Shown here one piece after another: positions 347-18,988 of a DNA stretch of 24,471 bases. The position numbers and the translations under genes are program-made. Numbering within the stretch: position 1 is the stretch's first letter; the number at the start of each line of letters is the position of its first letter. The DNA comes from a virus, in IMG/VR virus record IMGVR_UViG_3300028025_003438, positions 1 through 24,471 of that record. One strand, written 5' to 3'. The notes beneath the pieces are model-generated. The model ran no database searches and was not told where the DNA came from. It saw only the letters and a program-made list of their open reading frames with translations.

Positions 347-1951
347 ATGTCCCGCTGGATACATGCACCATGCCCTAAATGTAGTTCATCAGACGCATTT
401 AGCTACAAAGAAGATGATAGTCATGGCTTCTGCTTTAGCTGTCAGAAGTCTTCACCTGTAGACCTTAACTTTAAACCAACTGTATATCACAAAGAGAATT
501 ACGACATGCATACCTTAGAGGAAATTAAAGATTATGACACTAGAGGATTTCAAGAAAGAGCTATCACAAAAGTGGTTGCATCTCATTATGGAGTTAAAGT
601 ATCGTATGCAGAAGATGGTACAATCAGTAGTCACTTCTACCCATATACTCGTGGCGGTATCGTTGTTGCCTATAAGGAACGTAAACTACCTAAAACATTC
701 CTTATACATGGTGACTTTAAAGACACTGAGTTATTTGGCCAGAATGTTTCCTCAGGTGGTAAGCGCATTGTTATTACTGAAGGAGAACTGGATGCGCTTG
801 CCGTGGCACAAGCCCAACACGATAAATATTCTAAATTCTATCCGTCAGTCGCAATCCCGTCGGCATCGGCAATGTCTCTGATCCTTAATCAACGTGAGTA
901 CCTTCGTAGCTTTGATGAAGTAGTACTTATGTTTGATATGGATGAGCCAGGTAAAAAGGCTACTCAACAAGCAGCTAAGATTATTGGTTACGATAAAATT
1001 AAAGTAGCAGACTTACCTGAGAAAGATCCATGTGATGTATTAATTAAACATGGTTCAGCAGAGTTAATGAAGTGTATCTTTAATGCTCGTACATACAGCC
1101 CTGCTGGTGTAGTTAAAGGTGAAGAGATCTGGGAACAGTATCAGCGTAGACAGTCTACTGTATCTGTACCTTATCCTCATTGTTTAAATGGCTTAAATGA
1201 AAAGCTATATGGTATGAGACAAGGTGAGATTGTATTGTTTACTTCAGGTACTGGCTCAGGTAAATCAACTGTCATTAAAGAAATTGTATTTGAAATCCTA
1301 AGTAAAACTACTGACATGGTGGGTATGGTTTCTCTTGAAGAATCTGTAGGTGATACTGCTCAAAAGTTTATTAGTATGCAGCTACAAAAGAATCTTAATG
1401 TTGATGTTGTATCTGAACAAGAACAATATGAAGCATTCCAAACAGTCTTTGGTGATGAACGATTAATCTTATTAGACCACCAAGGTTCTGTAAGTGATGA
1501 GTCACTCATTGATAAGATGGAACACCTAGCATTGATGGGTTGTAAGTATATTATCCTTGATCACATTACTATTGCTGTATCTGAAGGTGCTAAGGGTAAG
1601 ACAGGTAATGAGGCAGTTGACTCTGTTATGTCTGACTTACTTAAGATAGCTAAGAAACATAACGTATGGTTAGGTGTTGTATCTCACCTACGTAAAGGTG
1701 AAAAACCTTTTGAAGAAGGTAACTTACCTACTATTGATGACATCAAAGGTTCTGGTTCTATCAAACAAATTTCATTTGATATTATCGCTTTTGCACGTAA
1801 TATGATTGCTGAAACAGAAGCAATGCGTAATACTATTCGTCTTCGTGTTCTTAAGTCTCGCTTTACTGGTCTTACAGGTGACTGTGGTACTACTAAGTAT
1901 GATGCTGGTACAGGACGACTACAACAAAATACATTCGTAGACTTTCAATAA
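347..1951 (+). CDS. T7 gp4-like DNA primase-helicase
   Basis: This bifunctional replication protein makes RNA primers and unwinds DNA at the phage fork. At 534 aa it is close to the 566 aa of T7 gp4. A zinc ribbon has C9, C12, C29 and C32 (CPKC and CFSC). The TOPRIM primase core has the conserved Glu in TEGELDALA (E145) and the metal-binding DxD in FDMDEPG (D197, D199). A RecA-type hexameric helicase follows, with Walker A GTGSGKST (301-308), Walker B YIILD (401-405), and a C-terminal KSRFTG motif (503-508) whose Arg corresponds to the gp4 arginine finger. Both activities therefore look intact. The start is an ATG one base after the preceding stop with AGGGAG upstream. The RNA polymerase gene follows after 9 bases. 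Arginine codons here are mostly CGT (11 of 20). Confidence 0.95.
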   Translation: MSRWIHAPCPKCSSSDAFSYKEDDSHGFCFSCQKSSPVDLNFKPTVYHKENYDMHTLEEIKDYDTRGFQERAITKVVASHYGVKVSYAEDGTISSHFYPYTRGGIVVAYKERKLPKTFLIHGDFKDTELFGQNVSSGGKRIVITEGELDALAVAQAQHDKYSKFYPSVAIPSASAMSLILNQREYLRSFDEVVLMFDMDEPGKKATQQAAKIIGYDKIKVADLPEKDPCDVLIKHGSAELMKCIFNARTYSPAGVVKGEEIWEQYQRRQSTVSVPYPHCLNGLNEKLYGMRQGEIVLFTSGTGSGKSTVIKEIVFEILSKTTDMVGMVSLEESVGDTAQKFISMQLQKNLNVDVVSEQEQYEAFQTVFGDERLILLDHQGSVSDESLIDKMEHLALMGCKYIILDHITIAVSEGAKGKTGNEAVDSVMSDLLKIAKKHNVWLGVVSHLRKGEKPFEEGNLPTIDDIKGSGSIKQISFDIIAFARNMIAETEAMRNTIRLRVLKSRFTGLTGDCGTTKYDAGTGRLQQNTFVDFQ

Positions 1952-1960
1952 AAGGAATAC

Positions 1961-4162
1961 ATGAATCCAGTACAATATCTATCTGAAAGAGTAGCCAAAG
2001 TCGTGGTCAACTCAGATAAGATTTATAATGAGGGTGCTCGACTATTAGCACATCATCCAACATGGGAATATGACTTAGAAAGGTTTGTAAATGAATCGTG
2101 GGACACACTTCTCCGCTACTGTATTCGCAACAAGAATGCAACTCATAGCGCATCAGTTAAACTTACTTTTGCAAGTGACCTTATCGGAAAACGAATCGCA
2201 AGAGCTATTGGAACTGATGAAAGCAACATCAAATCAACTCTCGCTCTTGGAGACATTCTACTCGAAACATTTCTCCAAGATAGTCTTATAGATATCTTCA
2301 GAGAGTATGATGGATTTAAAGCTCCATACATGGTGCGTATTGTCAACATGCCTGACAATATTAAGCCTACATTAATAGGTACTTCATTTGAACCTTTATT
2401 ACCTATAGCTGGTCTATACAGTAACCTTACTAAAGAACCATTCATTAAAGGATGGACTAACAGTAAGCTGTTTCATGAGTACTTAGATAAACCTTTTGTA
2501 CGTGCATTAGAAACATTACGCCAACAACCTTGGGTATTAAATCAAGGTGTGTTAGAAGGTATGAGAAACTATAAGCCAACTGAAATACTAAAGTTGGTTG
2601 ATGATGATGGTGTATTATATGACTACAACATTCATTATGAAAATTTAGAACTACCAAAGAAGCTTAAGCACCTAGATGGTACTTTTTTCCTTGGTAAGAA
2701 AGACCCTAAGCTACAACGTATGCTTAGTAAGTTCTTTGAATACAATCAAGTAGTAAAGAAAGCTGAATTGATTGGTGATAGATCATTCTATCAAGAAGTA
2801 TCCTGTGACTATCGTGGTCGAGTATACTATGCTGAATCCTTCTTAGAGTTTCAGGGTAGTGACTTGGCTCGTAGTCTCTTTTTATTCCAGAATAAAAAAG
2901 AAATGGATGATCGTGGTTACTTCTGGCTTAAGGTTCATACAGCAGGATGCTATAATGAATCGTTTAATGTTAATAAATTACCACATTATTTTACTACTGA
3001 CTATAAGACTTATTTAAAAGGAGAAGGTTTAGATACTATTTCTCTTGATAAAATGACTCTTGAAGACAGAGCTATATGGGTAGATAATAATTTAATTAAA
3101 TTAGCTAACATTGCTAATCAATATACTATAGATACATCCGCTGAAAAGCCTTACAGTTTATTAGCTTGTTGTCTTGAAATTAAAAATTATATCCAAGCTA
3201 AATCTAAAGGTAAGAAGCATATGTCTGGTCTTCCTATACCTATTGATGGTAGTAATAATGGATGGCAGCATCTGGCAGCTATGTCTAGAGATACCCAAGC
3301 AGCTACCTTAGTATCATTAGTACCTACACCTATACAGAAAGACTTTTATGTAGCTGTGGCTAAAGAGCTAATTAACATTATGCCTGACTACTTTAAACAA
3401 AAGAATATGCCTATGAAAGATATCCGTAAAGGTATTGCTAAACGAGGTTCTATGACTCGTGCATACTCAGCAGGTAAACAACGTATTGCTAAGAATATGT
3501 ATGATGACTGCCATGTAGAAGGATTTACTGTTAAATATGGTATCACAGAAAAAGAATGTGGAGACTTAGCAGGTAACCTAATTAAGGCTATTAATGCAGT
3601 ATGCTCTGGTCCATTAAAGACAACTAAGTTCTTACAAAAAATTGCTGAACATGAGCTTAACTCTGGTCGTAATCAACTATCATGGCATACACCTTCAGGA
3701 TTCCCTGTAGTGTATAAAGCATTTCTTCAGCATGAACGTAAACATAGAGGTACTATTAGAGGTATACCTGGAAACCCTAAAGGAAGGATTAGACATGTTA
3801 TTAAAGTGGATGTACTCAATAAAGATACAGGTGAAAAAGTTCCTTGTAGACGCTCCTTTGCTTCTGGCATCAGCCCTAATCTCGTTCATAGTTACGATGC
3901 TGCTCATATGGCTAATGTTATCTCTATTTTTAATGGCAACTTTGGTGCTGTCCACGACAGCTTTAGTACTCATGCCAGTGAAGTGGATTTTCTTCAGGAA
4001 GTAACTAAGATGACCTTTGTAGCACAGTATGATATAGAAAACTTCTTTAGTAATCTTATGGATACATTAATGCTTAACAAAGATACATTCACTTACCCTC
4101 CACCAGAAGAAGGTACATTAGATTTAAAACAAGTCTATGAATCTAAATACTTTTTCTGCTAG
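1961..4162 (+). CDS. T7-like single-subunit DNA-directed RNA polymerase with short N-terminal domain
   Basis: This phage-type RNA polymerase would transcribe phage genes from phage-specific promoters. At 733 aa it is about 150 residues shorter than T7 RNAP (883 aa). All catalytic landmarks are present: DxxGR (DYRGR, 283-287), motif A IDGSNNGWQH with catalytic D429, motif B with K494 and Y502 in KRGSMTRAYSAG, the SPNLVHSYDAAHM segment (638-650), and motif C VHDSFSTH with D666. It ends in FFC, near the aromatic FAFA end of T7 RNAP. A long insertion between about 583 and 635 occupies the place of the T7 promoter specificity loop. The DxxGR motif lies about 138 residues earlier than in T7, so most of the size loss is N-terminal, where T7 binds and melts promoters. 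Start ATG with AAAAGGAA upstream. Confidence 0.96.
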   Translation: MNPVQYLSERVAKVVVNSDKIYNEGARLLAHHPTWEYDLERFVNESWDTLLRYCIRNKNATHSASVKLTFASDLIGKRIARAIGTDESNIKSTLALGDILLETFLQDSLIDIFREYDGFKAPYMVRIVNMPDNIKPTLIGTSFEPLLPIAGLYSNLTKEPFIKGWTNSKLFHEYLDKPFVRALETLRQQPWVLNQGVLEGMRNYKPTEILKLVDDDGVLYDYNIHYENLELPKKLKHLDGTFFLGKKDPKLQRMLSKFFEYNQVVKKAELIGDRSFYQEVSCDYRGRVYYAESFLEFQGSDLARSLFLFQNKKEMDDRGYFWLKVHTAGCYNESFNVNKLPHYFTTDYKTYLKGEGLDTISLDKMTLEDRAIWVDNNLIKLANIANQYTIDTSAEKPYSLLACCLEIKNYIQAKSKGKKHMSGLPIPIDGSNNGWQHLAAMSRDTQAATLVSLVPTPIQKDFYVAVAKELINIMPDYFKQKNMPMKDIRKGIAKRGSMTRAYSAGKQRIAKNMYDDCHVEGFTVKYGITEKECGDLAGNLIKAINAVCSGPLKTTKFLQKIAEHELNSGRNQLSWHTPSGFPVVYKAFLQHERKHRGTIRGIPGNPKGRIRHVIKVDVLNKDTGEKVPCRRSFASGISPNLVHSYDAAHMANVISIFNGNFGAVHDSFSTHASEVDFLQEVTKMTFVAQYDIENFFSNLMDTLMLNKDTFTYPPPEEGTLDLKQVYESKYFFC

Positions 4163-4163
4163 T

Positions 4164-4187
4164 ACTAGCTAGCCATAGCTGGCCAGT
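4164..4187 (+). other. Hairpin in the gap between RNA polymerase and reductase genes
   Basis: ACTAGCTAGC and GCTGGCCAGT can pair as a 10-bp stem with one A-C mismatch and one G-U pair around the loop CATA. The element starts two bases after the polymerase stop. No run of T follows, so it is not a standard intrinsic terminator. It could be an RNA processing site, an mRNA 3'-end stabiliser or part of a regulatory region. It sits directly before the GTCCCCTAATA repeat copy. Confidence 0.5.
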
Positions 4188-4188
4188 T

Positions 4189-4199
4189 GTCCCCTAATA
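4189..4199 (+). promoter_or_regulatory. Copy 1 of GTCCCCTAATA, candidate phage RNA polymerase promoter core
   Basis: This 11-base sequence occurs exactly twice by eye on the plus strand, here and at 6360-6370. The two copies precede the only noteworthy gaps of the rightward unit. This one ends 25 bases before the reductase start. Its pyrimidine-rich block followed by TAATA loosely recalls the initiation end of T7-group promoters. The bases after it here (CCGAAG) do not give the GGG start of T7 promoters. Promoter function is inference. Confidence 0.35.
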
Positions 4200-4224
4200 C
4201 CGAAGAATAAAACAAAAGGAACTC

Positions 4225-6102
4225 ATGAACTCTTATCAACAACTTATCGCTAAATCCCGTTATGCACGTTACTTACCTGAAAAGAAACGTAGGGAGAATT
4301 GGAATGAAACCTCTGAACGTTGGATAGCTTTCTTTCAAAGAGAATTAAAAAATAAAATTAAACCAGATGACAGTATCTGGAATATTCTAGGTAATGAGAT
4401 TAATAATTTGTCTACATTACCCTCAATGCGTTCTATCATGACAGCTGGTGAGGCTCTTCGCCGCACTAATGTAGCCGCATATAATTGTTCTTATTTACCT
4501 ATAGATAATCCTCGTTGTTTTGATGAGGCCATGTACATCCTATTATGTGGCACTGGAGTGGGCTTCTCAGCTGAACAACAATATACGGGTCTATTACCCC
4601 CAGTACCTTCCCTTGTAAATGATCATAATGTTATCATTAAAGTGCAAGACAGTAAAGAAGGTTGGTGTGACGCCTATCGTATCCTTGTTAATATGTTATA
4701 TCAAGGTACCATCCCTACATGGGATGTATCCTTAGTACGTCCTGCAGGTGCTCCGCTTAAGACCTTTGGTGGTCGTGCTTCTGGTCCTGGTCCATTGATT
4801 GACTTGTTTATTTATACAGTTAATAAATTTATGATTGCCCAAGGACGTCAGCTAAAGCCTATCGAGTGCCATGATATCATGTGTAAGATTGGTGAAGTAG
4901 TTGTAGTAGGTGGTGTACGCCGTAGTGCTATGATTAGCTTAGGTGACTTAGGAGACTATGACCATGCTACCGCTAAGACAGGTACATGGTGGGAACAACA
5001 TGGTGAACGTGCTCTGGCTAATAACTCAGCTGTATACAATAGTAAGCCTTCTGTAGGCGAGTTCATGAAGGAGTGGTTAGATATCTACAACAGTCATTCA
5101 GGTGAACGAGGAATCTTTAATCGTGAAGCATCACAAAAACAAGCAGCAAAATGGGGTCGTCGTGATAGTACCACAGACTATGGAACAAACCCTTGTTCAG
5201 AAATTATCCTCAAGCCCTACCAATTCTGTAATCTATCTACCGTTGTTGTATCTCCCGAAGATACTTTGGAATCACTCAAACACAAAGTAAGAATTGCTAC
5301 TATCATGGGTACTATGCAGTCAACTCTAACTTACTTCCCTTACCTACGTGATATCTGGCGTACTAATACTGAGTCAGAACGTTTGTTAGGTGTGTCTATG
5401 ACTGGTATTTTAGATAATCAACTATTACGTGGTCAAGGTAATATGAATCTAGAAGAAGTTTTATCTACCCTACGTGACGTAGCTCGTGATACTAACCAAG
5501 AATGGGCTGAGATCTTAGGTATACCTGCTTCAACAGCTATTACCTGTGTTAAGCCTGAAGGTACTGTATCTCAGTTAACACAAACAAGTAGTGGTATTCA
5601 TGCTGGACATGCACCATATTATATCAGACGTATTCGTCAAGATAAAAAGGATCCTTTAACACAGTTCTTAATTGAACAAGGTGTTCCTCATGAAGACTGT
5701 GTGATGAAGCCTGATCAAACATCTGTGTTTAGCTTCCCACAACGTTCACCAGGATTTACCCGCAAAGACTTAACCGCTATTGATCATTTAAATATCTGGT
5801 TAATGTATCAGCGTTATTGGTGCGAACACAAACCATCTGTTACTATCTCTGTTAAGGAACATGAATGGATGGAGGTAGGTGCATGGGTATATGAACACTT
5901 TGATGAGTGTACTGGTATCAGCTTCTTACCTGATGATGGTGGTACTTATCGTCAGGCTCCATACGAAGATATTGACTTGTCAGTATATCATCGTTTAAAA
6001 GATACACAACCCACTATTGATTGGGAAAATTTTATTGAAGATCGTGATAATGTTGAGGGTGCTCAAACATTAGCATGTGCAGCAGGAGGATGTGAGATTT
6101 GA
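4225..6102 (+). CDS. Class II (adenosylcobalamin-dependent) ribonucleoside-triphosphate reductase
   Basis: This enzyme reduces ribonucleotides to deoxyribonucleotides for phage DNA synthesis, using coenzyme B12 to form a thiyl radical. The sequence (625 aa, against 739 in the Lactobacillus monomeric enzyme) shows LPSMRS (65-70), the redox Cys in YNCSYLPID (C88), the active-site loop TNPCSEI with N322, C324 (thiyl radical position) and E326, the partner Cys in FCNLS (C335), and the KPEGTVSQL phosphate-binding loop (443-451). It ends in CAAGGC (C618, C623), a C-x4-C pair that passes electrons to the active site. No oxygen-labile glycyl radical domain or small subunit is present, as expected for class II. 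The start ATG follows AAAGGAAC. The stop overlaps the start of the thioredoxin-like gene, its likely electron donor. Activity would depend on cobalamin in the host. Confidence 0.95.
   Translation: MNSYQQLIAKSRYARYLPEKKRRENWNETSERWIAFFQRELKNKIKPDDSIWNILGNEINNLSTLPSMRSIMTAGEALRRTNVAAYNCSYLPIDNPRCFDEAMYILLCGTGVGFSAEQQYTGLLPPVPSLVNDHNVIIKVQDSKEGWCDAYRILVNMLYQGTIPTWDVSLVRPAGAPLKTFGGRASGPGPLIDLFIYTVNKFMIAQGRQLKPIECHDIMCKIGEVVVVGGVRRSAMISLGDLGDYDHATAKTGTWWEQHGERALANNSAVYNSKPSVGEFMKEWLDIYNSHSGERGIFNREASQKQAAKWGRRDSTTDYGTNPCSEIILKPYQFCNLSTVVVSPEDTLESLKHKVRIATIMGTMQSTLTYFPYLRDIWRTNTESERLLGVSMTGILDNQLLRGQGNMNLEEVLSTLRDVARDTNQEWAEILGIPASTAITCVKPEGTVSQLTQTSSGIHAGHAPYYIRRIRQDKKDPLTQFLIEQGVPHEDCVMKPDQTSVFSFPQRSPGFTRKDLTAIDHLNIWLMYQRYWCEHKPSVTISVKEHEWMEVGAWVYEHFDECTGISFLPDDGGTYRQAPYEDIDLSVYHRLKDTQPTIDWENFIEDRDNVEGAQTLACAAGGCEI
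6084..6089 (+). promoter_or_regulatory. Strong AGGAGG ribosome binding site for a TTG start
   Basis: A perfect AGGAGG lies within the last codons of the reductase gene, nine bases before TTG 6099. It supports use of the rare TTG start for the thioredoxin-like protein, since the first in-frame ATG would remove the CxxC motif. Confidence 0.75.
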
Positions 6103-6368
6103 ACTTATATAAATTTTATACTGATACATGTGTACCATGCAGACAAATGAATAATCGTATTAAAGATGTAGATTTTCATTTTGATTATGGTGTAATATTA
6201 ACTAATGTTAATGCTACTGAAAACACAGAGCTTAGAGACAAGTATGGGGTTAAGACTGTACCTACCTTTGTACTAGCCGATGATAAAGATAATATGATTC
6301 GTAAGATCAGTGGATCTATTTCTTTACCTGAGTTAGATACTTTTATTACAGGCACAGCCGTCCCCTAA
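6099..6368 (+). CDS. Thioredoxin/glutaredoxin-like protein, likely reductant for the reductase
   Basis: This small thiol-disulfide oxidoreductase (89 aa) of the thioredoxin fold probably reduces the C-terminal cysteine pair of the upstream ribonucleotide reductase. The active site is TCVPC (C11, C14) right after the first beta strand. The cis-proline motif is VKTVPTF (P55), preceded by the usual helix and YGV segment. The protein is shorter than classical thioredoxin (about 108 aa), and the Trp of WCGPC is replaced by Thr, so it is a minimal phage version. The start is TTG at 6099, overlapping the reductase stop as TTGA with AGGAGG upstream. The next ATG is residue 17, which would lose the CxxC. 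The last codons (GTC CCC TAA) form part of the GTCCCCTAATA repeat. The tRNA pair follows. Confidence 0.88.
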   Translation: MNLYKFYTDTCVPCRQMNNRIKDVDFHFDYGVILTNVNATENTELRDKYGVKTVPTFVLADDKDNMIRKISGSISLPELDTFITGTAVP

Positions 6369-6370
6369 TA
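6360..6370 (+). promoter_or_regulatory. Copy 2 of GTCCCCTAATA, candidate promoter core before the tRNA genes
   Basis: This copy overlaps the end of the thioredoxin-like gene and ends eight bases before the first tRNA. Here it continues as GGGAACA, so CCCCTAATAGGGAA resembles the start region of T7-group promoters, where transcription begins at GGG. The same bases can also form a short hairpin (GTCCCC/GGGAAC with one mismatch, loop TAATA). Promoter function is inferred from the repeat and its position. Confidence 0.4.
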
Positions 6371-6378
6371 GGGAACAT

Positions 6379-6453
6379 TGCGGAATAGCTCAGTAGGAGA
6401 GCGCTGGACTCATAATCCAGAGGTCAGTGGTGCGAATCCACTTTCCGCAACCA
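6379..6453 (+). tRNA. tRNA with CAU anticodon (elongator Met or Ile2)
   Basis: A full 75-nt cloverleaf with encoded CCA can be folded by hand. The acceptor TGCGGAA/TTCCGCA has 7 bp, the D stem is GCTC/GAGC, the anticodon stem CTGGA/TCCAG holds loop CTCATAA (anticodon CAT), and the T stem is AGTGG/CCACT. The discriminator is A. The first acceptor pair is T-A and the anticodon stem lacks three G-C pairs, so it is not an initiator tRNA. It either reads AUG or, if the C is converted to lysidine by host TilS, reads AUA as isoleucine. The T loop is TGCGAAT, with G in place of the near-universal T at position 55. Confidence 0.9.
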
Positions 6454-6461
6454 CCATACAA

Positions 6462-6536
6462 GGGTCATTAGTTCAATGGATAGAACAGTGATCTTCTAAG
6501 TCACGAGTGCATGTTCGATTCATGCATGACCCACCA
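6462..6536 (+). tRNA. tRNA-Arg (UCU anticodon)
   Basis: A 75-nt cloverleaf with encoded CCA. The acceptor is GGGTCAT/ATGACCC, the anticodon stem is GTGAT/GTCAC with one T-G pair, the anticodon loop is CTTCTAA (anticodon TCT), the T stem is GCATG/CATGC with the standard loop TTCGATT, and the discriminator is A. It reads AGA and probably AGG. It lies eight bases after the CAU tRNA, so the two are likely processed from one transcript. AGA and AGG are the main arginine codons in the giant 1201-aa late gene but a minority in the primase gene. Confidence 0.95.
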
Positions 6537-6546
6537 TAGGACACAT

Positions 6547-6900
6547 ATGAAATATAAAACACATAACTCAAGGAAATTCCTTAATAACAAACATGGGTTA
6601 GCAGCTATCCAAACTAGTTGTGATATCTCTGGTTGGGCTATGGATGCTAGTGTTACTATTTCCGACTGTAACAGGAATATTACATTAGACTTTAGTGTAT
6701 ACCGAGAAAAAGATTATGCTGAGAAGGCTAAAAAGTTAGCTTTAATTATTAATGAATTAGTAGCAGTACAATCATTTATGGAAGCAAATCTAGATACCTT
6801 TATTGAAGCTAAAAAGAAAGCAGACTTAGAAAGAAAAGAGTCTTTAAGTAAGAGAAAATCAACACCACTTTCACAAATATTAGAGGGATTAGATGATTAA
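6547..6900 (+). CDS. Conserved-looking phage protein of unknown function (117 aa)
   Basis: I do not recognise this family. The N-terminal half looks like a small beta domain (TSCDISGWAMDASVTISDC, then ITLDFSVYREKDYAEKA). The C-terminal half is a helix followed by a strongly charged, Lys/Glu-rich stretch (EAKKKADLERKESLSKRK) and a short tail. The start chosen is ATG 6547, five bases after AGGA (6538-6541). An upstream in-frame ATG at 6511 is rejected because it lies inside the tRNA-Arg gene. The stop overlaps the start of the next gene by 8 bases. Confidence 0.75.
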   Translation: MKYKTHNSRKFLNNKHGLAAIQTSCDISGWAMDASVTISDCNRNITLDFSVYREKDYAEKAKKLALIINELVAVQSFMEANLDTFIEAKKKADLERKESLSKRKSTPLSQILEGLDD

Positions 6901-7132
6901 TGAATATGATATCCGAGATATGCGTGATGACAGCATTATCTTTGAATGTAAACACAGTAACCCTAAGTTAATTACTCGTATGGAAATGTCTGCTCACTCT
7001 CATATCACTGAGGTAGTAGAACAGTTTGAAAGATTCCTACGAGGTATGGGATACTTTCCTCCATCAGGATGTCATCTGGAATTTGTAGATGACCATACAT
7101 ATACTATGGATTGGGCAGACGCTAATGAGTAA
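6893..7132 (+). CDS. Small acidic phage protein of unknown function (79 aa)
   Basis: The protein begins MINEYDIRDMRDDS and contains a helix-like stretch (ITEVVEQFERFLRGMGY) followed by a short hydrophobic strand (HLEFVDD). Small phage proteins with a 'helix, FLRG.GY, then strand' pattern are common near replication genes, as far as I remember, but no function is known to me. It overlaps its upstream neighbour by 8 bases and its downstream neighbour by 8 bases, consistent with coupled translation. Confidence 0.75.
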   Translation: MINEYDIRDMRDDSIIFECKHSNPKLITRMEMSAHSHITEVVEQFERFLRGMGYFPPSGCHLEFVDDHTYTMDWADANE

Positions 7133-7223
7133 GGGTAGTAATCGTAGACCTACTGATGAACAAAAATTTAAAGATAATTATGATAGAATCTTTGGACAAA
7201 AGAAAAAGGAAGAAAAGAAATGA
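7125..7223 (+). CDS. Tiny basic phage protein (32 aa)
   Basis: A 32-residue frame starts at ATG 7125 and stops at TGA 7221-7223. It overlaps the preceding gene by 8 bases and the Dps-like gene by 4 (ATGA), so it bridges two genes exactly. The protein begins MSKGSNRRPTDEQKF, contains DRIFG, and ends in a run of Lys and Glu. From memory, very short proteins with an M-S-K-G-S, R-P, D, F, N, D-x-I-F-G pattern are widespread in podoviruses. No role is established as far as I know. Its last codons contain the AAGGAAG ribosome binding site of the Dps-like gene. Confidence 0.7.
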   Translation: MSKGSNRRPTDEQKFKDNYDRIFGQKKKEEKK

Positions 7224-7678
7224 GTGAATATAATTCAATAGCGCCAGCATTAAAGTGTCTTCATGCTGATAATTTTACAACATACTTTAAATCACACGCA
7301 TTTCATTTTAATGTTCAAGGAAATACCTTTGCACAAGATCATGGATTATTAGAAGAAATTTATTCTTTTTTGTGGGAACAACATGATACTTTAGGTGAAC
7401 AAATTCGTCAATTAAATTTACCTACTTCAATTAGCATGAGTGATATGCTTAAAACAACTGAAATTAGTGAAGCTTCAGGAGTAACTAGCAATAGTGTTAA
7501 CATGTTTGAATCCATATTAAAAGATTTTAATATACTTATGGCTAATGCTCAATGGGTTTATGATAAAGCAGAATCAAGTAATATGGGTGGCTTGTCAACT
7601 TTAGTTGGTGATTATTTAAAAGACTTATCTAAGTTACGTTGGAAAGTACGTGCAACATTAGGAAAGAGTATGCCATGA
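7220..7678 (+). CDS. Dps-like ferritin-family protein (152 aa)
   Basis: Dps proteins form 12-subunit shells that oxidise and store iron and protect DNA from oxidative damage. This one matches the family signature FHFNVQG followed by a Phe, a His and a long acidic helix. By spacing to E. coli Dps (H51, H63, D67, D78, E82), the ferroxidase ligands appear as H29, H41, E45, D56 and E60. All five are present, one as Glu for Asp. The length is slightly below the usual 155-170 aa. There is no Lys-rich N-terminal tail of the kind that binds DNA in E. coli Dps, so DNA binding is uncertain. The start overlaps the tiny upstream gene (ATGA) and the stop overlaps the next start (ATGA), so it is embedded in the phage operon rather than being a stray host gene. 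Confidence 0.88.
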   Translation: MSEYNSIAPALKCLHADNFTTYFKSHAFHFNVQGNTFAQDHGLLEEIYSFLWEQHDTLGEQIRQLNLPTSISMSDMLKTTEISEASGVTSNSVNMFESILKDFNILMANAQWVYDKAESSNMGGLSTLVGDYLKDLSKLRWKVRATLGKSMP

Positions 7679-7932
7679 ATAATGTAAAAAATTATAACAT
7701 CTTTGCATTAAAAGGTGATACACAAACTTCAGATGCGGATGTATGTGAAGCACTAGGGCTAGATCCTAATTTAGCTAACACACCAGAATTAAATGAGGCT
7801 GCTATTAGAAAAATGCACAAGGAAAATTATGATGGGTATATCAAACAAGGTATGCCATCAGATGATGCTTTAGCTAAAGCAGATAAGCTTGCTTACAACG
7901 CAAGAAAAGAAATTCGTAGTCTTACTAAATAA
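7675..7932 (+). CDS. Small phage protein of unknown function (85 aa)
   Basis: This is the last gene of the rightward unit. The start chosen is ATG 7675, which overlaps the Dps-like stop as ATGA and has AGGA about 12 bases upstream. An in-frame ATG at 7639 would add 12 residues lying entirely inside the Dps-like gene and is less likely. The protein begins MNNVKNYNIFALKGD and appears mostly helical, with LGLDPNLANTPELNEAAIRK and a basic C-terminal helix ending EIRSLTK. I recognise no family. The bidirectional terminator begins 9 bases after its stop. Confidence 0.72.
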   Translation: MNNVKNYNIFALKGDTQTSDADVCEALGLDPNLANTPELNEAAIRKMHKENYDGYIKQGMPSDDALAKADKLAYNARKEIRSLTK

Positions 7933-7941
7933 AGAAAAAAT

Positions 7942-7977
7942 AACCCCTTCAAGGAATAATCCTTGAGGGGGTTTTTT
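7942..7977. terminator. Bidirectional intrinsic terminator between convergent operons
   Basis: CCCCTTCAAGGA and TCCTTGAGGGGG form a 12-bp stem with one G-T pair and the loop ATAA (7956-7959). The stem is extended by A-T pairs from flanking A and T runs. T6 follows on the plus strand, and AAAGAAAAAA precedes it, which reads as a T-rich tract on the minus strand. It therefore fits a rho-independent terminator in both directions. It lies between the last rightward gene (stop 7932) and the last leftward gene (stop 7983). Confidence 0.93.
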
Positions 7978-7982
7978 ATTTG

Positions 7983-10900
7983 TTAAGCGTGATTCATTTG
8001 AGCAATACCTGCATTACCTAAATTACGTTTAAATTCTTTGAATCCTTCTTCTACTTCATGAGCAAAATTATCTACCCATAATTTAAACTTATTATTGGCA
8101 CCACCCATTCCAAAAGCTTCTTCAGCTATATTGAATAAGTCTCTAAATGATTTAGCATCTACTGCTAGATTAGGTTTACCTTGAATCCATCCAGCATCAG
8201 TAGCTTTCTTAAGAATGATTTTTTGTTTAGCAACATAGTCATTCCAACTATCCTCGCTATTATGAGACCTTCTTAAGAATACTTCTTTATATGCAGAACT
8301 TTCTATCTTCTTTGCTATTTCATCAAAGACACCACCAAGAGTAGGATAGTCGCCATTATCTCCAATGCCAATATACTTTTCACCTGAAAGTTTATCAAAT
8401 AAATTTCTTTTAGCTTCATTGTATGCTTTATCTAGCTTAACTCCAAACTTAGCAATTTCTTTTACAGCTTGTGGTATAGCAATATTGTTATAAGCATTTC
8501 TATAAATGTGCATACTATCAGCAGTTGTAATTAAAGCATCATGAATAGTAGCTACTGGCATAGGCATTTTAAGTCTTGAATTAACTGCAAGCATCATAAG
8601 CTTAATTAAATCCCCATCAGTAGATTGAACAGGCATAACTCCCATTTGCCTAGATAATGCAGATCCAATTGCATTCTCAAATAAATCAAATGTTTTTGTT
8701 TTCTTATTAAAGAATCTTTGAATACCTTTAGAAGAATTAGGGTTTAAACCTCGTTTAGCCATTGGTGCTTCTACAATACCATTAGGTGTTTGATATTGAG
8801 TAGTTGTTTGACCAATAATTTTTTCTACATACTCCTGTCCTTCAGCTGTAATAGCTTGGCTAATAATATTTTTATTATAGTCAGGTATAAATCCACAATC
8901 AACCGAACTAAAAGACCAATGATCTTTAGCGGTACCTTCAATAGTAGGTACAGTATCCATAACAGCAAACATACGACCTACTCGTTTAAGTGATTCAACA
9001 AATTTAGGGTTAATTGTTTTTCTTAATGTAGCTTCCATAGCATTAGATAAGTCGGTTGCTGCGGCATTAAAATCATTACCGTAAGCTTGGCTTAACACAG
9101 TACCATAGATATCTGAATATTCCTGGGTATCCTGTAAGAATTCTCTGATATGATCAAAGAACATACCTGCATCTTTACCATAAGAGTTTTGCATCATAGG
9201 TACTTTAAACAAATCAGATGCTAATTTATCTGGTAGTTTAGAGTATGCTTCCATAAAGAACTTAGTCCAAGCTTGTTTCTTTTCAGGTTGATCAGGAATT
9301 AATTCATCTAATTGATCACCAATTATATTTAAAGCATGCCCACGCATATCTTCTAATGAAGGGTTGTAAGAACCTAATCGAGTTGCAACAGGGGTATTTC
9401 CTGCATAAAGGGCTTGAATAAAAATACCATTTTGATTTCCATCATCATAATTTAATGCTGTTAATCTTACAGGTGATCTAGATAGTTCAGGAGATTTTGC
9501 AGCTGTTTCTATTTGAAACATATCATCCCATAAATTTTGAAATCCTTGAGCTTCACCTCTAGGCATTTTACTAAGCTTATCTAAAACAAATGAGCTATCA
9601 TTGTCTATTTTACCATCTAACCAGTCATTATATTCTTTACCTAATGCAGCTAAATATCCTGCTATTTCTGGTGTATACATTTTGATTAAATCAATTTCAG
9701 AATATTTTTTAATATTCTTTTTTATATTAGCAGGATCAGCAGAAAAAGAATAGTAATTAACTACAGCCATTTCCATTAAACCTAAGGTAGCTCTTTCAAA
9801 AGGAGTAAGTGCTATCAAAGCTTTATGCCTATCTTCTCCCTGTTTAGCAAATATAGATACTGCTTTATCTTTTAATTCTTGAACCTTTGTGGGATTAAAA
9901 AATGATGTTGAAGTAACGTGTCCTTGTACACCAAAATTAAGCATTTCTCGAATACCACTTTTAGAACCCATGATATCAGTGCCATCGCTGTTTCTAAAGA
10001 AACGCTGATTAGCACTACTATGTATGTAAGCGCTATATAATAACCCTCTTAAGCCTGATGCATTTTTAATATCTCTTTCTAGAGCCTTTTCTTTAGTATT
10101 CATTTGTTGAACAGCATGATCAATTTTAGTTTGATTAAATTTAGCTCTTTGTTCAGGATCACTATCATTATAATCTTTAGGTGGAGAAACATTATTTAAA
10201 AGATTTTTATAAGAAGCTTCATCCATTTTATGTCGTTTAGCAAACACACTAGTGGAGTAGTATCCTGTTTCATCATTTACCATTTTATTTTTGATATCGG
10301 TAAGTTGAAAGTAAGTAGACTTTACATTCTTCTTTAAAAACTTTTCAGCTATAGAACCAAAAATATCTTTAACAGCTTCTGCTACAGTAGAGGTTGTTCC
10401 AGGAATCTTCATAGTATTTTTACTAGTTTGACTTCCTGGTCTTAAGAAATTAGAACCTGATAATTGAGGTACCTTAGAAGGAGGAGATCTACGAGTATCC
10501 CCTGCTAATGCTTCAGATAGCATACTTAATTCTCTAGCATAATCTTTAATTCTAGGTGTAGAACCTAAAACCCATCTGCCATTTTTATCCTGCATTAGCC
10601 TATGGTTTCCATTATACTTTTCTGCTTGTACTTTAGCTTCAACTAATTGTCTAACAGCATCTGGAGGTATATTAATACCTACTCTATCAAGAGCATTTTG
10701 AGCAGAATGTATCATAGAATTAATTAGATTAACTTCTGGTACAGCATCCTCAATAACATCTCCATTTTTATCTACAATAAGGCCACTATCTTCTTTAGTA
10801 TACCCTGTGTTAGGGCTATCTTTAAATTGATTAGTTTCACTTGTAGCTAAAATATGAGCAATACCTATAATAGTAGCTAAAGGTTTAACTTGTTCTTGTG

Positions 10901-11588
10901 GAATATCAAATTCATGTTGTATTTGAATACCCACAGGAACACCTTCATACCCTGCTTTTGTGCTTCCTATAGTGGCATCTAATGGATTAAACAAATCATG
11001 TTCTGTGCTATTAGAAATAGTAGCTAAAACAGGAGCCATTTTATCAGCCATTCTATTGATTGTTACTTCATCAAAATCGCCTTTATTATTAGTAGTTATA
11101 ATGGCTTTAGCCATAGCTACAGGATTGTCTTCCATTAAAGCAGCATCAAAATTAGGGACAGTTTCTAATTGCGCTGCTTGTTCTTCTCCAAACCTTTCCA
11201 TAGGTATTTCTTGTAGCTGATGCTCACCTGTTGTGGGGTCCACAATTGCTCTACCTAATTCATCAAATGCAGGCTCCATCCTTGTTAGGTTAGCATGAGG
11301 AGATTGAGTAACCTCTGCAAGGGCTTCTGGAGATGATAACCCTGTAATCCTATTAGACTCTATTACCCCTTTCATTCCAGGAGCTGGCATAGGAGGAGGG
11401 GATAAAGGCACTGGGTTGTATGTGTTAACACCTTCTTGAGCAGCAACAGAGCCAGGGATTACTGGAGTAGACCCCTGACCATATCTGTCTACAGCTTGGT
11501 TCATTAGGTCTTGAACCGATAATTTACCACCAATAGGCGCAGCAATATTAGCATTGCTTGTTGATGGCGTTGAAACTTTTCCGACCAT
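7983..11588 (-). CDS. Giant virion protein with N4-vRNAP-like RNA polymerase motifs (1201 aa)
   Basis: I infer a virion-packaged, ejected RNA polymerase. In order it has: SSANQRFF (524-531) followed by GSKSGIREMLNFG (541-553), matching the T/DxxGR region and the GSD..R.LF segment of T7-like polymerases; motif A as NYDDGNQNGIF with catalytic D716; motif B as FKVPMMQNSYGK with K795 and Y803, exactly eight residues apart as K631 and Y639 in T7; motif C as TIHDALITT with D1017. The usual Arg four residues before the motif B Lys is Ser here, and DxxGR is diverged to SANQR. About 500 residues precede the core, starting with a Pro-rich, low-complexity segment, and about 180 follow it. It is much smaller than N4 vRNAP (about 3500 aa) but similar to its 1106-aa active core. 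It is the last late gene and its start overlaps the upstream stop (TAATG). Confidence 0.82.
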   Translation of the reverse strand: MVGKVSTPSTSNANIAAPIGGKLSVQDLMNQAVDRYGQGSTPVIPGSVAAQEGVNTYNPVPLSPPPMPAPGMKGVIESNRITGLSSPEALAEVTQSPHANLTRMEPAFDELGRAIVDPTTGEHQLQEIPMERFGEEQAAQLETVPNFDAALMEDNPVAMAKAIITTNNKGDFDEVTINRMADKMAPVLATISNSTEHDLFNPLDATIGSTKAGYEGVPVGIQIQHEFDIPQEQVKPLATIIGIAHILATSETNQFKDSPNTGYTKEDSGLIVDKNGDVIEDAVPEVNLINSMIHSAQNALDRVGINIPPDAVRQLVEAKVQAEKYNGNHRLMQDKNGRWVLGSTPRIKDYARELSMLSEALAGDTRRSPPSKVPQLSGSNFLRPGSQTSKNTMKIPGTTSTVAEAVKDIFGSIAEKFLKKNVKSTYFQLTDIKNKMVNDETGYYSTSVFAKRHKMDEASYKNLLNNVSPPKDYNDSDPEQRAKFNQTKIDHAVQQMNTKEKALERDIKNASGLRGLLYSAYIHSSANQRFFRNSDGTDIMGSKSGIREMLNFGVQGHVTSTSFFNPTKVQELKDKAVSIFAKQGEDRHKALIALTPFERATLGLMEMAVVNYYSFSADPANIKKNIKKYSEIDLIKMYTPEIAGYLAALGKEYNDWLDGKIDNDSSFVLDKLSKMPRGEAQGFQNLWDDMFQIETAAKSPELSRSPVRLTALNYDDGNQNGIFIQALYAGNTPVATRLGSYNPSLEDMRGHALNIIGDQLDELIPDQPEKKQAWTKFFMEAYSKLPDKLASDLFKVPMMQNSYGKDAGMFFDHIREFLQDTQEYSDIYGTVLSQAYGNDFNAAATDLSNAMEATLRKTINPKFVESLKRVGRMFAVMDTVPTIEGTAKDHWSFSSVDCGFIPDYNKNIISQAITAEGQEYVEKIIGQTTTQYQTPNGIVEAPMAKRGLNPNSSKGIQRFFNKKTKTFDLFENAIGSALSRQMGVMPVQSTDGDLIKLMMLAVNSRLKMPMPVATIHDALITTADSMHIYRNAYNNIAIPQAVKEIAKFGVKLDKAYNEAKRNLFDKLSGEKYIGIGDNGDYPTLGGVFDEIAKKIESSAYKEVFLRRSHNSEDSWNDYVAKQKIILKKATDAGWIQGKPNLAVDAKSFRDLFNIAEEAFGMGGANNKFKLWVDNFAHEVEEGFKEFKRNLGNAGIAQMNHA

Positions 11589-14500
11589 TATTTACCTTCT
11601 TTCTTAAATGCGTTAGCAATAGCTTGTTGTGTCCAAGGAAAGCTTCCTAATACAGGAGCTGCTTTGGCAAGCTTCTTTGCACCTTTATCTGTTTTACCTT
11701 CTTCAATATCGTATAGACCTTCACCAACATTTGCAGCCCAAGATGCTTGTGGTGATGCATTTTTAATTTGGCTATAAGCCCAGTCAACTGGTTTACCTTC
11801 TATGACTTTACCTTTAGGTGTTGTTGTATCAAACAAGTTAGGTGACTTATGGAAATCATACAAAGGATCAACTCTTTCCCATAGTTTTTCACCTTGACCT
11901 AACAAACCTGAGCTATATATTAGTCTTTGTGTTTTCTTAGCAGTTGATTTTACATAAGGACTATCATCATCTCCATAAGATAAACCATTTTTAAGCATAT
12001 TAACCATATGACCTGCAATAAGCGACATTGCAATAGTAGTAAATGCACTATAGCGCATAGCCATATTACCCTCTAATAAATATTGTTTGTATAATCTAGG
12101 TAACACAACTGCTTGAGCTGTAGCCATGAATCTTCCCATAGCTGTAATTATTCTAAATCTAGGATCATTAAATATTTTAGGAGTGTTAAACGCCTGAGGA
12201 TTAACAATTCTTTGATCAACCATATTTGATAATGCAGTAGCCACGTTATCTTGGAGATGCTGTGCTTCAGGAGTAGTAGCATTAAAGCTCATAAAGTCTT
12301 GACTAAAAGGGTTTAAGTCTGGCATCTTATCCATTTGAGATAAGAAACCATGTACATCTAAACCATAAGATTGTAATTCTGTTAATGCCTGAGCTTGTTC
12401 TTTTGTAAGACCCATACCTGTTGAAAACATTGCTATTCTATTTGTTTCAGGAACAGAGGCTAACGATTGTAGTTGTGTAAGCATAATATCAGAACCCACA
12501 GAAAGAACAGCAATACGATTTGCATCTGTTTGCGCTCTTAAAGTAATAGCTCTTGCAAATATACCCATTATTTTTCTTTGAATACCTGCTGCAGTGTTTG
12601 CATAATCATACCGTAAAGCTGCACCAGCACCAGTCTCATTATAGCCTAATCTATTAATCATTTTTTGGCCAAAATTTTCTTTAACTAATTTATCAACTTC
12701 GTCTTGGATAGCCTTATATTCTTCTAAAGTTAAATTAGGGTCTTGTTGTTTATTAATAAGGGTATCAATTTTATTTTGTAAAGATACACTAGGTACTGAT
12801 CTTAACATATTGATACCTATCCTAGAGGCAGCATAAGATACCCCTTTATTTATATCAGAAGCTGTTTCTTTAAAATAGGATTTAAAAAAGGTACTTAATT
12901 GTTTTCCTATTAAATGACCAGGAGTTCCAAGAGTTGCTATAGAAGTTTCTGCCATTGAAGACACTGCTGCTTTACCTAAATAAGCTAACATAGACATTGT
13001 GGTACTCCATCCTAATGTCTTATTAATTAAAGATTCTTCTGCTAATGGGTGAAAATTATTATTCATAATATCATAAAAAGCTTTAACCTGTGTTGCAGTG
13101 TTCTTATAATCAGCATCATCTTTAAATTCACCAGCAGCTTTTGCTTTTCTTAGTAACTCAGCTAACACTTGTCCATTCTTACCAAAATAAGTATTAGCCA
13201 TAATGCTATTAGCCATTTGATCTTTATGGTGTTCAATATTATCAAAGATACCTTGTTTAAATAAATGACTTAAATTAGGATTAGTGAATACATTAAATTG
13301 ATTTAAATAATCTCTAGCTAAGCTAGCTTCTTGTTTATTTTTTGAAGTTAAATTATTAATAGCAGTTCTTGCAGAGTTTTGATCTGCATTAGCATTAACC
13401 ATTTCAGTAAGAATATTTAACTTATTAGCAGCCCATAAAGCAGGATCAACCTCAGCTGCCTGAAACAAGGCATTAGTGTCAGATAAATGTAAAGTATTTA
13501 CTCCAGCTACTTGTCCTAAGCTAATCATAGATTGTTGTACGTTATCTAATCTATCTTTCCATGCTTGTAACGTATCACTAAAAGCATCTCCACCTAATGT
13601 ACCTCCTTGACTCCATACTTGATCATAATTAACCTGAACATATTTTTGTGCTTCTTCTTTGCTAACTCCTAATTGTGCAGCTAAATCATCACCACTAATT
13701 TCTTCAGACCATTTACCTAGTAATCTTTGTCTAAAACCAGAGGCATGCTCTCCAGGAAGTATACCAAACCCACCCATAATAGATTTTATTTTTGCTAAGT
13801 TAGTTTTAAAACTACCATCTTCATTAACAATAGAAGGAATAGCTGTATGAGCAAGTTGTCTAAGGTTAGACAAGGGATTAGTAATCATAGGTAATACTGT
13901 TTCTCTAAAGAAACCTGTATGGGTAGGTATTGTATCTAATCCACCAGCATTATTATTTTGAGCATTTTTGCTTTCAGTTCTAGACATTTCTTGAACAGTT
14001 CTATACCCGCCAGTTTGATTTAAAAGGTTTTCATGGTTTTGAGCATTAAACCTTTGAGCATCTCCTAACATTTTTTCATTTAATGCTTGTAAATCAGCAG
14101 CCCCATGCCATCCAGCCATGTCAATACTATGATGTACACCGCCAAAAGCACCTCCAACTAAAAAGCCCCCACCTGCTGCTTCTTTAAGTTGGTTATAATA
14201 GTCAGGAGTATAATGGTAATTAAGATTACGTTGACCAGATTGGCCTAGCATTTCTAATTCTTGTTGTGCAGTTTCTGTAATTGATTCAGCTCCTGCTCTA
14301 ATAACTAAATCACCAGATCTTTTAGCCATAGCTTCTGCTGATTTAATTTGCTTCATAGCAAATTCATTAGAAAAACCTGTTAGCTTAAGTATCTCACTTT
14401 TTGTTTCAGTATGAAGAAGATTTCTTGCTTCTGCTTCGGTTAGCCTACCATTACTTTTAGCTACTATAGCAGATACAGCCTCTTTTTCTCCCACCTTAGT

Positions 14501-15838: not shown

Positions 15839-15853
15839 ATACTCTCCTTTTGT

Positions 15854-18800: not shown

Positions 18801-18988
18801 ATCTTATATTTGTGAACGTCTTCTTTATGACCTAATGTTTGTCCAGCCTTACCAGCAGCTTCTACAAGTTTAATTTCATGTAGTTGTTGTTTACGGGCTT
18901 CTTCCCGTTCCATCTTAGCTGTTTCTCTGGCTTCTTGAGAAGCAAACTTTAGGTACTCTCTGTGTTGTTTAGCAGATAGTGGTCCCAT
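15854..18988 (-). CDS. Large internal virion or ejection protein with DG repeat motifs and coiled coil (1044 aa)
   Basis: The N-terminus is a charged helix (about 8-45). TVPAMLTPGEAVIP (111-124) is followed by PKNKPIIKRMVQEGRK, a motif I remember from large virion proteins of many phages. Residues 241-297 (EYSL, YPSLVPTLS, then a helix and GQSPFADRLG) match another recurring podovirus virion segment. Six copies of a short pattern [YF]-x-[DE]-G-x-x-x-[VI] occur between 158 and 376 (for example YADGTSAVP, FEDGTERVY, YEDGVEDVP). A long Gln/Glu/Arg-rich coiled coil covers about 620-735, followed by a Gly/Asp-rich linker and a C-terminal domain of unknown function. The start lies one base after the upstream stop. 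A structural role is inferred from context; no enzymatic motif was seen. Confidence 0.75.
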   Translation of the reverse strand: MGPLSAKQHREYLKFASQEARETAKMEREEARKQQLHEIKLVEAAGKAGQTLGHKEDVHKYKMGTLGAPLKVKSPNPLAGTELFKRGQHMLPYQAEDAAKARKAAKQNTDTVPAMLTPGEAVIPEPAAQDPKNKPIIKRMVQEGRKANKTKKGFLEFRDGSINIVNSDVIPSRVQQAAGYKDGTKKVKGKGLAPDGLRYQNDDPTQSSISYEMPMPKGKGYMGEIPVYNQEISIRPSAMTEYSLDDNKGQYPSLVPTLSNKEVQLITQGQMNDAIANKAAAYRDMRVNAGQSPFADRLGVKIPVGYTDTLYADGTSAVPQLMNYNEGTIQVPVPSLAYEHSDVPGSSFEDGTERVYDFNRGSSASYHYEDGVEDVPMLEPTVIAGPVIDYQKVIPENLVRVSTIKDKIENKIEDAVPRSVYPDVTADMKLKDVQAKINGSVSSEFDIPERPFKNVGMEVIEPLPMLAAKPKVVVEGKDRFPVPSPVVAKSVGGNNSTIDMPAEPVAFIPDPDAKQASNAEMQALIDVNEGKIVPPLKPEDDDTRPEYWIKQLRGSQKDVDKAIANKDDESAINSLKDLFTYKGIKSVLGLNDQEVARLAVATVAGRAMGYDTARALSYGGRQAFETSLRRQAQEEANKRQDKQLAAQTEREDMRTAITLAGQAKSDKKAEADRKLAEKRLSLQERKEEAIQAAREADRRFEILKEDNRWSHTQSKDARAEQQHLNDQLLLYISKDIPPAVRSKGLGMAFAEAKTPEDWMNNMRNATTYLAANVQHYPPGYGRRGGSGSGDDDGEGGSSGKNKKYKPNWQSYVTPEGNTITASRRPDGHLDVATPQGVVAVPSNYAVNYNEKKDNENNVRTIVENRVKAIKGINEGQVGKMKEDAVLMSQQFQHINPVQFSHALEKTFSNLKEKGEGLSSDAFKHAFTTTAIVEMNPSSSHLYSGTDKEGKSGYLSDRAQVDMGKAMEQLSRTHKGKLDVADKDMKTKWNSLTPEQRETMLRIGSNGKGQDVGKRREGYSAYSEFVIQMAKPPENRDYPWLKTIK

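What the first reader, a model, noticed from the sequence alone, without database searches (positions are those of the whole stretch)
1961..11588. Two RNA polymerases of the same superfamily in convergent operons suggest a two-stage transcription programme
A cell-made T7-like polymerase (1961-4162) and a virion polymerase-like protein (7983-11588) lie in units facing one another across a bidirectional terminator. A plausible programme is that the ejected polymerase starts early transcription without host RNA polymerase, and the T7-like polymerase then takes over. Textbook T7 uses host polymerase first, and N4 uses a two-subunit middle polymerase and then host polymerase late, so this layout would be a hybrid strategy.
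Basis: inference. Interest (0 to 1): 0.75.

Follow-up and report, generated by a model that had tools for sequence, protein, structure and literature searches.

The report
Phage with two T7-superfamily RNA polymerases
This aquatic virus of bacteria encodes an ordinary T7-type RNA polymerase and a second, unannotated one that is probably packed in the virus particle and injected, so it may read its genes with little or no help from the host's own polymerase.

Summary
ORF 1961-4162(+) is a T7-type single-chain RNA polymerase (RNAP). ORF 7983-11588(-), with no sequence match to an RNAP family, is a single-subunit RNAP as well. AlphaFold2 (pLDDT 85.6) finds only single-subunit RNAPs among its 50 best PDB matches. 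Its profile aligns with the N4 virion RNAP (P=6e-4), placing N4 R424, D559, K670, Y678 and D951 on R529, D716, K795, Y803 and D1017. Four of these five residues are invariant in 46 homologues (down to 14% identity); K795 is always Lys or Arg. Every related locus with at least 6 kb downstream of the T7-type RNAP carries the second gene, convergent. The relatives, including isolate CRP-7, lack N4's heterodimeric RNAPII. A T7-like promoter motif (core CCTAATAG) occurs 58 times in 13 relatives (1.2 expected), before middle and late genes; the early block starts upstream of it. Injection is inferred from near absence of cysteine, N4-like gene position and exchange as a cassette with the neighbouring gene. 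Early transcription by the second enzyme is untested. I read this as a new variant of the N4 strategy: a short virion RNAP paired with a single-chain T7-type RNAP.

The parts
1961..4162 (+). T7-type single-chain DNA-dependent RNA polymerase, 733 aa
   Evidence: PF00940 3.4e-55, phrog_414 2.9e-94; motifs PIPIDGSNNGWQH, KRGSMTRAYSAG, GAVHDSF
7983..11588 (-). second single-subunit RNA polymerase, putative virion (ejected) RNAP, 1201 aa
   Evidence: AlphaFold2 of residues 205-1201 pLDDT 85.6, pTM 0.84; Foldseek/VIA matches to T7, mitochondrial and N4 RNAPs; hhalign to N4 mini-vRNAP
10002..10004 (-). codon of R529, aligned with N4 R424 (TxxGR motif)
   Evidence: invariant in 46 homologues; alignment
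9441..9443 (-). codon of D716, motif A catalytic Asp, aligned with N4 D559
   Evidence: invariant in 46 homologues; alignment
9204..9206 (-). codon of K795, motif B, aligned with N4 K670
   Evidence: K or R in 46 of 46; alignment
9180..9182 (-). codon of Y803, motif B, aligned with N4 Y678
   Evidence: invariant in 46 homologues; alignment
8538..8540 (-). codon of D1017, motif C catalytic Asp (HDA), aligned with N4 D951
   Evidence: invariant in 46 homologues; alignment
7942..7973 (.). stem-loop at the meeting point of the two units, T-runs on both sides
   Evidence: 14-bp stem; sequence; the scan reported only the + strand
4184..4203 (+). candidate promoter of the T7-type RNAP (CAGTTGTCCCCTAATACCGA), in front of the ribonucleotide reductase gene
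   Evidence: (two matches in window vs mean 0.08 in shuffles); a homologous site follows RNAP in relative G002
6355..6374 (+). candidate promoter of the T7-type RNAP (CAGCCGTCCCCTAATAGGGA), in front of the tRNA genes
   Evidence: exact match to the consensus found in relatives
11588..15838 (-). 1416-aa cysteine-free protein, putative ejection partner with SNase-like N-terminus
   Evidence: 0 Cys; SNase PF00565 E=0.0019, sub-threshold; invariant D27 D29 T30 R44 E52 R95; diverged together with the RNAP gene between window and G014
15854..18988 (-). 1044-aa cysteine-free late protein, putative ejection protein
   Evidence: 0 Cys; conserved DTVPAMLTPGEAVIP stretch; the CRP-7 protein at the same position has a lysozyme-like domain PF16754 3.6e-6
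347..1951 (+). primase-helicase (context)
   Evidence: phrog_239 1.3e-149

Best explanation
The phage carries two single-subunit RNAPs. The 1201-aa late gene product is packed with its cysteine-free neighbours, is ejected with the DNA, and transcribes the early genes at the far end of the rightward block. The 733-aa T7-type RNAP, made in the cell, then transcribes the middle (+) and late (-) units from ~20-nt promoters with core CCTAATAG, including the unit that encodes the next generation of virion polymerase. Shown here: both proteins have the single-subunit RNAP fold or family and conserved catalytic residues; co-occurrence, layout and promoter-like sites. Inferred: packaging, ejection, early transcription by the second enzyme, promoter use, and how far host RNAP is dispensable.
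For: Fold: AlphaFold2 pLDDT 85.6; the 50 best Foldseek PDB hits are all mitochondrial, T7 or N4 RNAPs, best E=1.8e-13; VIA Z 24.9 to T7 1h38, and Z 19.2 with 707 residues aligned to N4 2po4. Profile: hhalign to the N4 vRNAP family P=6e-4, score 46.7 against at most 23.5 for reversed controls, five catalytic residues in register. Invariance: only 12 invariant columns in 46 proteins, four of them R529, D716, Y803, D1017. HDA/HDS/FDN rather than the HDE of family-A DNA polymerases, and a separate DNA polymerase is present in relative G014. Co-occurrence: 67 loci convergent, none lacking with 6 kb or more downstream; one PF00940 gene per contig. Promoter-like sites: 58 found vs 1.2 expected. Ejection: 0-2 Cys per ~1250 aa, as in N4 gp50/51/52 and T7 gp15/gp16 (0), against 9-12 in cell-made RNAPs. 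Same position as N4 gp50. RNAP gene and 1416-aa gene diverged together (49%, 43%) between window and G014, while the T7-type RNAP is 99.9% identical.
Against: No proteomics or transcription data. No N4-type hairpin promoters were recognised in the early regions (hairpin density near genome average). The conserved early-end element does not follow the type of the second RNAP, as it is shared by several types. The second RNAP of L039 is ~18% identical to the window's although the T7-type RNAP is 96% identical, so the two are not tightly co-adapted. N4 R666 has no counterpart in the window protein. Host RNAP promoters in the early block cannot be excluded: the sigma-70 scan is at chance level and uninformative, and the host is unknown.
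Confidence: 0.72

Rival explanations
1. The second enzyme is an active RNAP but is made and used in the cell late in infection (or as a replication primase) and is not ejected.
For: It is encoded in the late unit; no virion data exist.
Against: Late units already have T7-type promoter sites; near absence of cysteine matches ejected proteins and not cell-made RNAPs; position next to putative ejection proteins as in N4; diverged as a block with the 1416-aa neighbour; a primase-helicase is already present.
Confidence: 0.12
2. The second enzyme is ejected but serves mainly in DNA internalisation or as a conduit part, while host RNAP transcribes the early genes as in T7.
For: No early promoter of the second enzyme was identified; T7 uses host RNAP for early genes, with annotated E. 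coli promoters A1-A3.
Against: Full catalytic set kept at 14% minimum pairwise identity; no excess of sigma-70-like sites in the early block.
Confidence: 0.14
3. The 1201-aa protein is a family-A DNA polymerase relative or a decayed, non-catalytic structural protein.
For: The only Pfam hint is DNA_pol_A over motif C, E=0.0056.
Against: No E after HD in motif C; nearest folds are RNAPs in 50 of 50 rows; catalytic residues invariant; relative G014 has its own DNA polymerase.
Confidence: 0.02

Closest known systems
Phage N4 virion RNA polymerase gp50 (Schitoviridae)
   Same: Single-subunit RNAP fold; N4 R424, R440, D559, K670, Y678, D951 in register with R529, R547, D716, K795, Y803, D1017; essentially no cysteine; last gene of a leftward late unit facing the early/middle genes; Cys-free neighbours gp51/gp52
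   Different: 1201 aa instead of 3500; motif A YDDGNQNG rather than ExDGxxxG; motif C HDA rather than FDG; no hit to the N4 vRNAP family phrog_2206; no recognised hairpin promoters; partner RNAP is single-chain, not the gp15/gp16 heterodimer
T7 RNA polymerase (Autographiviridae gp1)
   Same: The 733-aa protein is of this family (PF00940, phrog_414), with T7-like ~20-nt promoter sites in the relatives
   Different: Here it co-occurs with a second, probably virion, RNAP, and late genes run against it; T7 uses host RNAP for early genes
Roseobacter phage CRP-7 gp30 and gp33 (MK613349, PMC6918029)
   Same: Same two genes in the same convergent layout; gp33 keeps the catalytic residues
   Different: 22% identity (tblastn) in the second RNAP; gp33 is annotated hypothetical and the paper names only gp30 as RNAP; CCTAATAG promoter sites absent
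Putative vRNAP of Stenotrophomonas phage StenR_269 and Zobellviridae proteins (PMC10747016)
   Same: Large Cys-free protein at a comparable position, proposed as vRNAP
   Different: That proposal rests on size, absence of Cys and helical content, with no motif or fold evidence; not compared here

Membership tests
Single-subunit RNA polymerase superfamily (for 7983-11588) | Cupped right-hand RNAP fold | tested here: met
   AlphaFold2 + Foldseek/VIA: best 50 rows are T7, mitochondrial and N4 RNAPs only
Single-subunit RNA polymerase superfamily (for 7983-11588) | Catalytic Asp pair (motifs A, C), motif B Lys and Tyr, TxxGR Arg | tested here: met
   D716, D1017, Y803, R529 invariant, K795 K/R in 46 homologues
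Single-subunit RNA polymerase superfamily (for 7983-11588) | DNA-dependent RNA synthesis | not testable with these tools
   needs biochemistry
N4-type vRNAP (Schitoviridae gp50) | Profile similarity to the gp50 polymerase domain | tested here: met
   hhalign P=6e-4 over 692 columns, reversed controls score at most 23.5
N4-type vRNAP (Schitoviridae gp50) | Giant size, 2842-3820 aa (PMC10654107) | tested here: not met
   1201 aa; homologues 1135-1474 aa
N4-type vRNAP (Schitoviridae gp50) | Motif ExDGxxxG (PMC10654107) | tested here: not met
   YDDGNQNG in the window; the CRP-7 type has the E but not the DG
N4-type vRNAP (Schitoviridae gp50) | Hairpin early promoters | tested here: inconclusive
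   hairpins with 3-5-nt loops (stem at least 6) near genome-average density in early regions; shorter stems not scanned
N4-type vRNAP (Schitoviridae gp50) | Encapsidated and ejected | not testable with these tools
   only indirect: Cys content, gene position, cassette divergence
Schitoviridae (the phage) | N4-type major capsid, terminase, heterodimeric RNAPII | tested here: not met
   G014: capsid phrog_1328, TerL phrog_2; N4: phrog_1357, phrog_38; one full-length PF00940 gene per contig
Schitoviridae (the phage) | N4-type portal | tested here: met
   phrog_1216 in both N4 and relative G014
T7-type RNAP (for 1961-4162) | PF00940 with motifs A, B, C in one chain | tested here: met
   3.4e-55, cut-off passed
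T7-type RNAP (for 1961-4162) | Recognises dedicated ~20-nt promoters in its own genome | tested here: inconclusive
   58 candidate sites vs 1.2 expected in 13 contigs show that such sites exist; use by this enzyme not tested
Autographiviridae (the phage) | One phage RNAP and genes all on one strand as in T7 | tested here: not met
   second RNAP and leftward late unit; T7 layout

The most novel reading that the evidence does not exclude
A widespread group of aquatic podophages runs its whole transcription programme with two single-subunit RNAPs and no host RNAP at any stage: an ejected short virion RNAP reads the early block, which opens with a conserved TCTYTGTGTG element and an adenine-poor leader of about 90-860 nt, and a T7-type RNAP then reads middle and late genes.
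Probability: 0.35. Interest if true: 0.8.

Novelty: new variant of a known kind. Interest (0 to 1): 0.63.

Why it matters
Virion RNAPs of the T7 superfamily have been treated as a Schitoviridae hallmark tied to a heterodimeric RNAPII (PMC4496689), and a recent N4 survey discarded vRNAP-related proteins under 2,500 aa (PMC10654107). A diverse family of ~1,200-aa candidates outside that family, found next to a single-chain T7-type RNAP wherever the contig is long enough, suggests that injecting a polymerase is more common than thought. It also offers a minimal virion RNAP for biochemistry and makes host-independent transcription testable in a cultured system (CRP-7 and its RCA Roseobacter host).

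Tried and rejected
phmmer of the 1201-aa protein against PDB sequences: nothing. NCBIfam: nothing for any of the six proteins tried. Direct profile match between the second RNAP family and the T7-type family of the same phages: not significant (score 19.7). Plain hmmsearch of the second-RNAP profile against T7, HTVC200P and N4 proteins: no convincing hit (best N4 gp16 E=0.0046). Search for N4-like hairpin promoters: no clear enrichment. Sigma-70-like promoters: at or below shuffle expectation. AlphaFold2 of the 1416-aa N-terminal part: low confidence (pLDDT 51.9), not interpreted. Idea that the early-end element is the specific promoter of the second RNAP: not supported by co-variation with RNAP type. 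DNA polymerase reading of the 1201-aa protein: rejected (motif C without E, fold, separate DNA polymerase gene). Literature searches for a vRNAP outside Schitoviridae combined with a T7-like RNAP found only the StenR_269 conjecture.
Full report
WHAT IS THERE. The window is a 24,471-bp virus fragment. Rightward genes: primase-helicase, the 733-aa RNAP, a ribonucleotide reductase, a thioredoxin-like ORF, two tRNAs, a Dps/ferritin-like gene. They end at 7932 and face a leftward block that starts with a 1201-aa ORF (7983-11588), followed by 1416-aa and 1044-aa ORFs and tail genes. Between them lies a 14-bp stem-loop at 7942-7973.

THE FIRST RNAP. 1961-4162 is a T7-type enzyme: PF00940 3.4e-55, phrog_414 2.9e-94. 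Its nearest isolate relative is CRP-7 gp30 at 33% identity.

THE SECOND RNAP. Database HMMs say almost nothing about the 1201-aa protein. Relatives in IMG/VR and in phage CRP-7 gave 46 distinct full-length proteins; in the first 40 the lowest pairwise identity is 14%. Only 12 columns are invariant: P374, R529, R547, G650, D716, R749, Y803, G975, Q988, D1017, N1034, N1035; position 795 is always K or R. These columns came from the alignment alone. A profile-profile alignment to 22 N4-type vRNAPs (N4 residues 998-2103) is colinear over 692 columns, P=6e-4, score 46.7; reversed-profile controls reach at most 23.5, and the known homologues N4 and T7-type score 40.2 on the same scale. It puts R529 on N4 R424, R547 on R440, D716 on D559, K795 on K670, Y803 on Y678 and D1017 on D951. 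N4 K437 and R440 bind the initiating nucleotide (PMC4496689); K543, near-invariant, is the counterpart of K437. AlphaFold2 without templates on residues 205-1201 gives pLDDT 85.6, pTM 0.84. The 50 best PDB rows are all mitochondrial, T7 or N4 RNAPs; VIA gives Z 24.9 to T7 (525 residues, 4.8 A) and Z 19.2 to N4 mini-vRNAP with the longest alignment, 707 residues. Motif C is HD followed by A, S or similar, or FDN as in N4's FDG, never the HDE of family-A DNA polymerases; the near relative G014 has a separate DNA polymerase. I take RNAP identity as shown by structure prediction and conservation, activity as inferred.

CO-OCCURRENCE. In 67 loci (some contigs appear twice) a T7-type RNAP and a member of the second family are convergent; all RNAP loci without the second gene have under 5.5 kb of sequence downstream, too short to tell. 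Each of 18 records searched has one T7-type RNAP gene; the second row in two records is the same gene's C-terminus, so N4's split RNAPII is absent.

PROMOTERS. In intergenic DNA of near-complete relatives one motif recurs: CAGTTGTCCCCTAATAGGGA in the window's group and TAGYCGGTACCTAATAGRGA in others. A pattern for both gives 58 sites in 13 contigs against 1.2 expected, 53 intergenic. Sites lie in front of middle + genes and - late genes, including the start of the late unit. The window has two, at 4184-4203 and 6355-6374. CRP-7 has none of this type. That these serve the 733-aa RNAP is inferred from their T7-like form. The genes at the far left of the rightward block lie upstream of the first + site, so something else must start them; sigma-70-like sites there are not above chance.

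IS THE SECOND RNAP EJECTED? Evidence is indirect. It has 0-2 cysteines per ~1,250 aa; N4 gp50/51/52 and T7 gp15/gp16 have none, cell-made RNAPs 9-12. Its gene sits where N4 gp50 sits. Its neighbours are Cys-free; the CRP-7 protein at the 1044-aa position has a lysozyme-like domain, and the 1416-aa protein has an SNase-like N-terminus. Between the window and contig G014 most genes are 90-100% identical and the T7-type RNAP 99.9%, but the second RNAP (49%) and the 1416-aa protein (43%) diverge together, as expected of partners exchanged as a unit.

HOW IT MOST LIKELY WORKS. Ejected second RNAP transcribes the early block (inferred); early or read-through transcription yields the T7-type RNAP (inferred); that enzyme reads the middle and late units from CCTAATAG promoters (sites shown, use inferred), so that a new second RNAP is made with the virion proteins and packed (inferred).

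PLACING IT. The phage is not a schitovirus by capsid, terminase, RNAPII or vRNAP length, though its portal family is N4's (tested on the relative G014). It is not a T7-like phage by layout. It works like N4 in outline with different parts. The CRP-7 paper annotated only gp30 as RNAP (PMC6918029). StenR_269 authors guessed a vRNAP from size and Cys absence (PMC10747016). An N4 survey removed proteins under 2,500 aa, which would drop this family (PMC10654107).

UNEXPLAINED. At the divergent end of near-complete relatives, just before the early genes, the strand read rightward is nearly free of adenine for about 90-860 nt: 0-9 A per 150 nt in 12 of 14 genomes (13 and 17 in the others) where ~45 are expected; the lowest values are 16 in T7 and 14 in HTVC200P, and the longest A-free run in N4 is 32 nt against up to 242 here. 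A TCTYTGTGTG-type element precedes it in 13 of 14. Two genomes show codon-like periodicity in the tract, so part may be coding. Early promoter region, replication origin or packaging site are all open.

Noticed in passing
relatives, e.g. L157:15345-15562 (contig G014); G011 6322-7182 (contig flipped so that RNAP is +); CRP-7 57384-58083: Adenine-poor tract (about 90-860 nt, often 0-3 A per 150) on the rightward strand at the divergent junction before the early genes, preceded by a conserved TCTYTGTGTG element; it is the A-poorest window in nearly every genome. The window itself does not reach this region. Function unknown.
   Followed up: partly
L106:11256-11499, L108:2928-3171, L109:11268-11501: Group I introns (Rfam RF00028, 87-89 bits) interrupt the T7-type RNAP gene close to the motif A codons in three relatives.
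   Followed up: partly
window 11588-15838 (-): N-terminus of the 1416-aa putative ejection protein looks like a staphylococcal-nuclease domain; invariant R44, E52, R95 keep the SNase R35/E43/R87 spacing (SNase residue numbers from memory).
   Followed up: partly
window 6511-16000 versus contig G014 (L156, L158): Mosaic exchange: genes on both sides are 90-100% identical, second RNAP and 1416-aa protein only 49% and 43%. L039 has a 96% identical T7-type RNAP but a second RNAP only ~18% identical.
   Followed up: partly
CRP-7 25696-29367 (L004): gp35, annotated hypothetical, carries a lysozyme-like domain (PF16754, E=3.6e-6), as in T7-type ejection proteins.
   Followed up: no
CRP-7 35552-38170 (L004): The B12-dependent ribonucleotide reductase is annotated as two pieces with a hypothetical ORF between, inside the late unit; possible intron or insertion.
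   Followed up: no
window 7220-7678 (+): Dps/ferritin-like protein (PF00210 1e-8, phrog_3636) near the end of the rightward unit.
   Followed up: no
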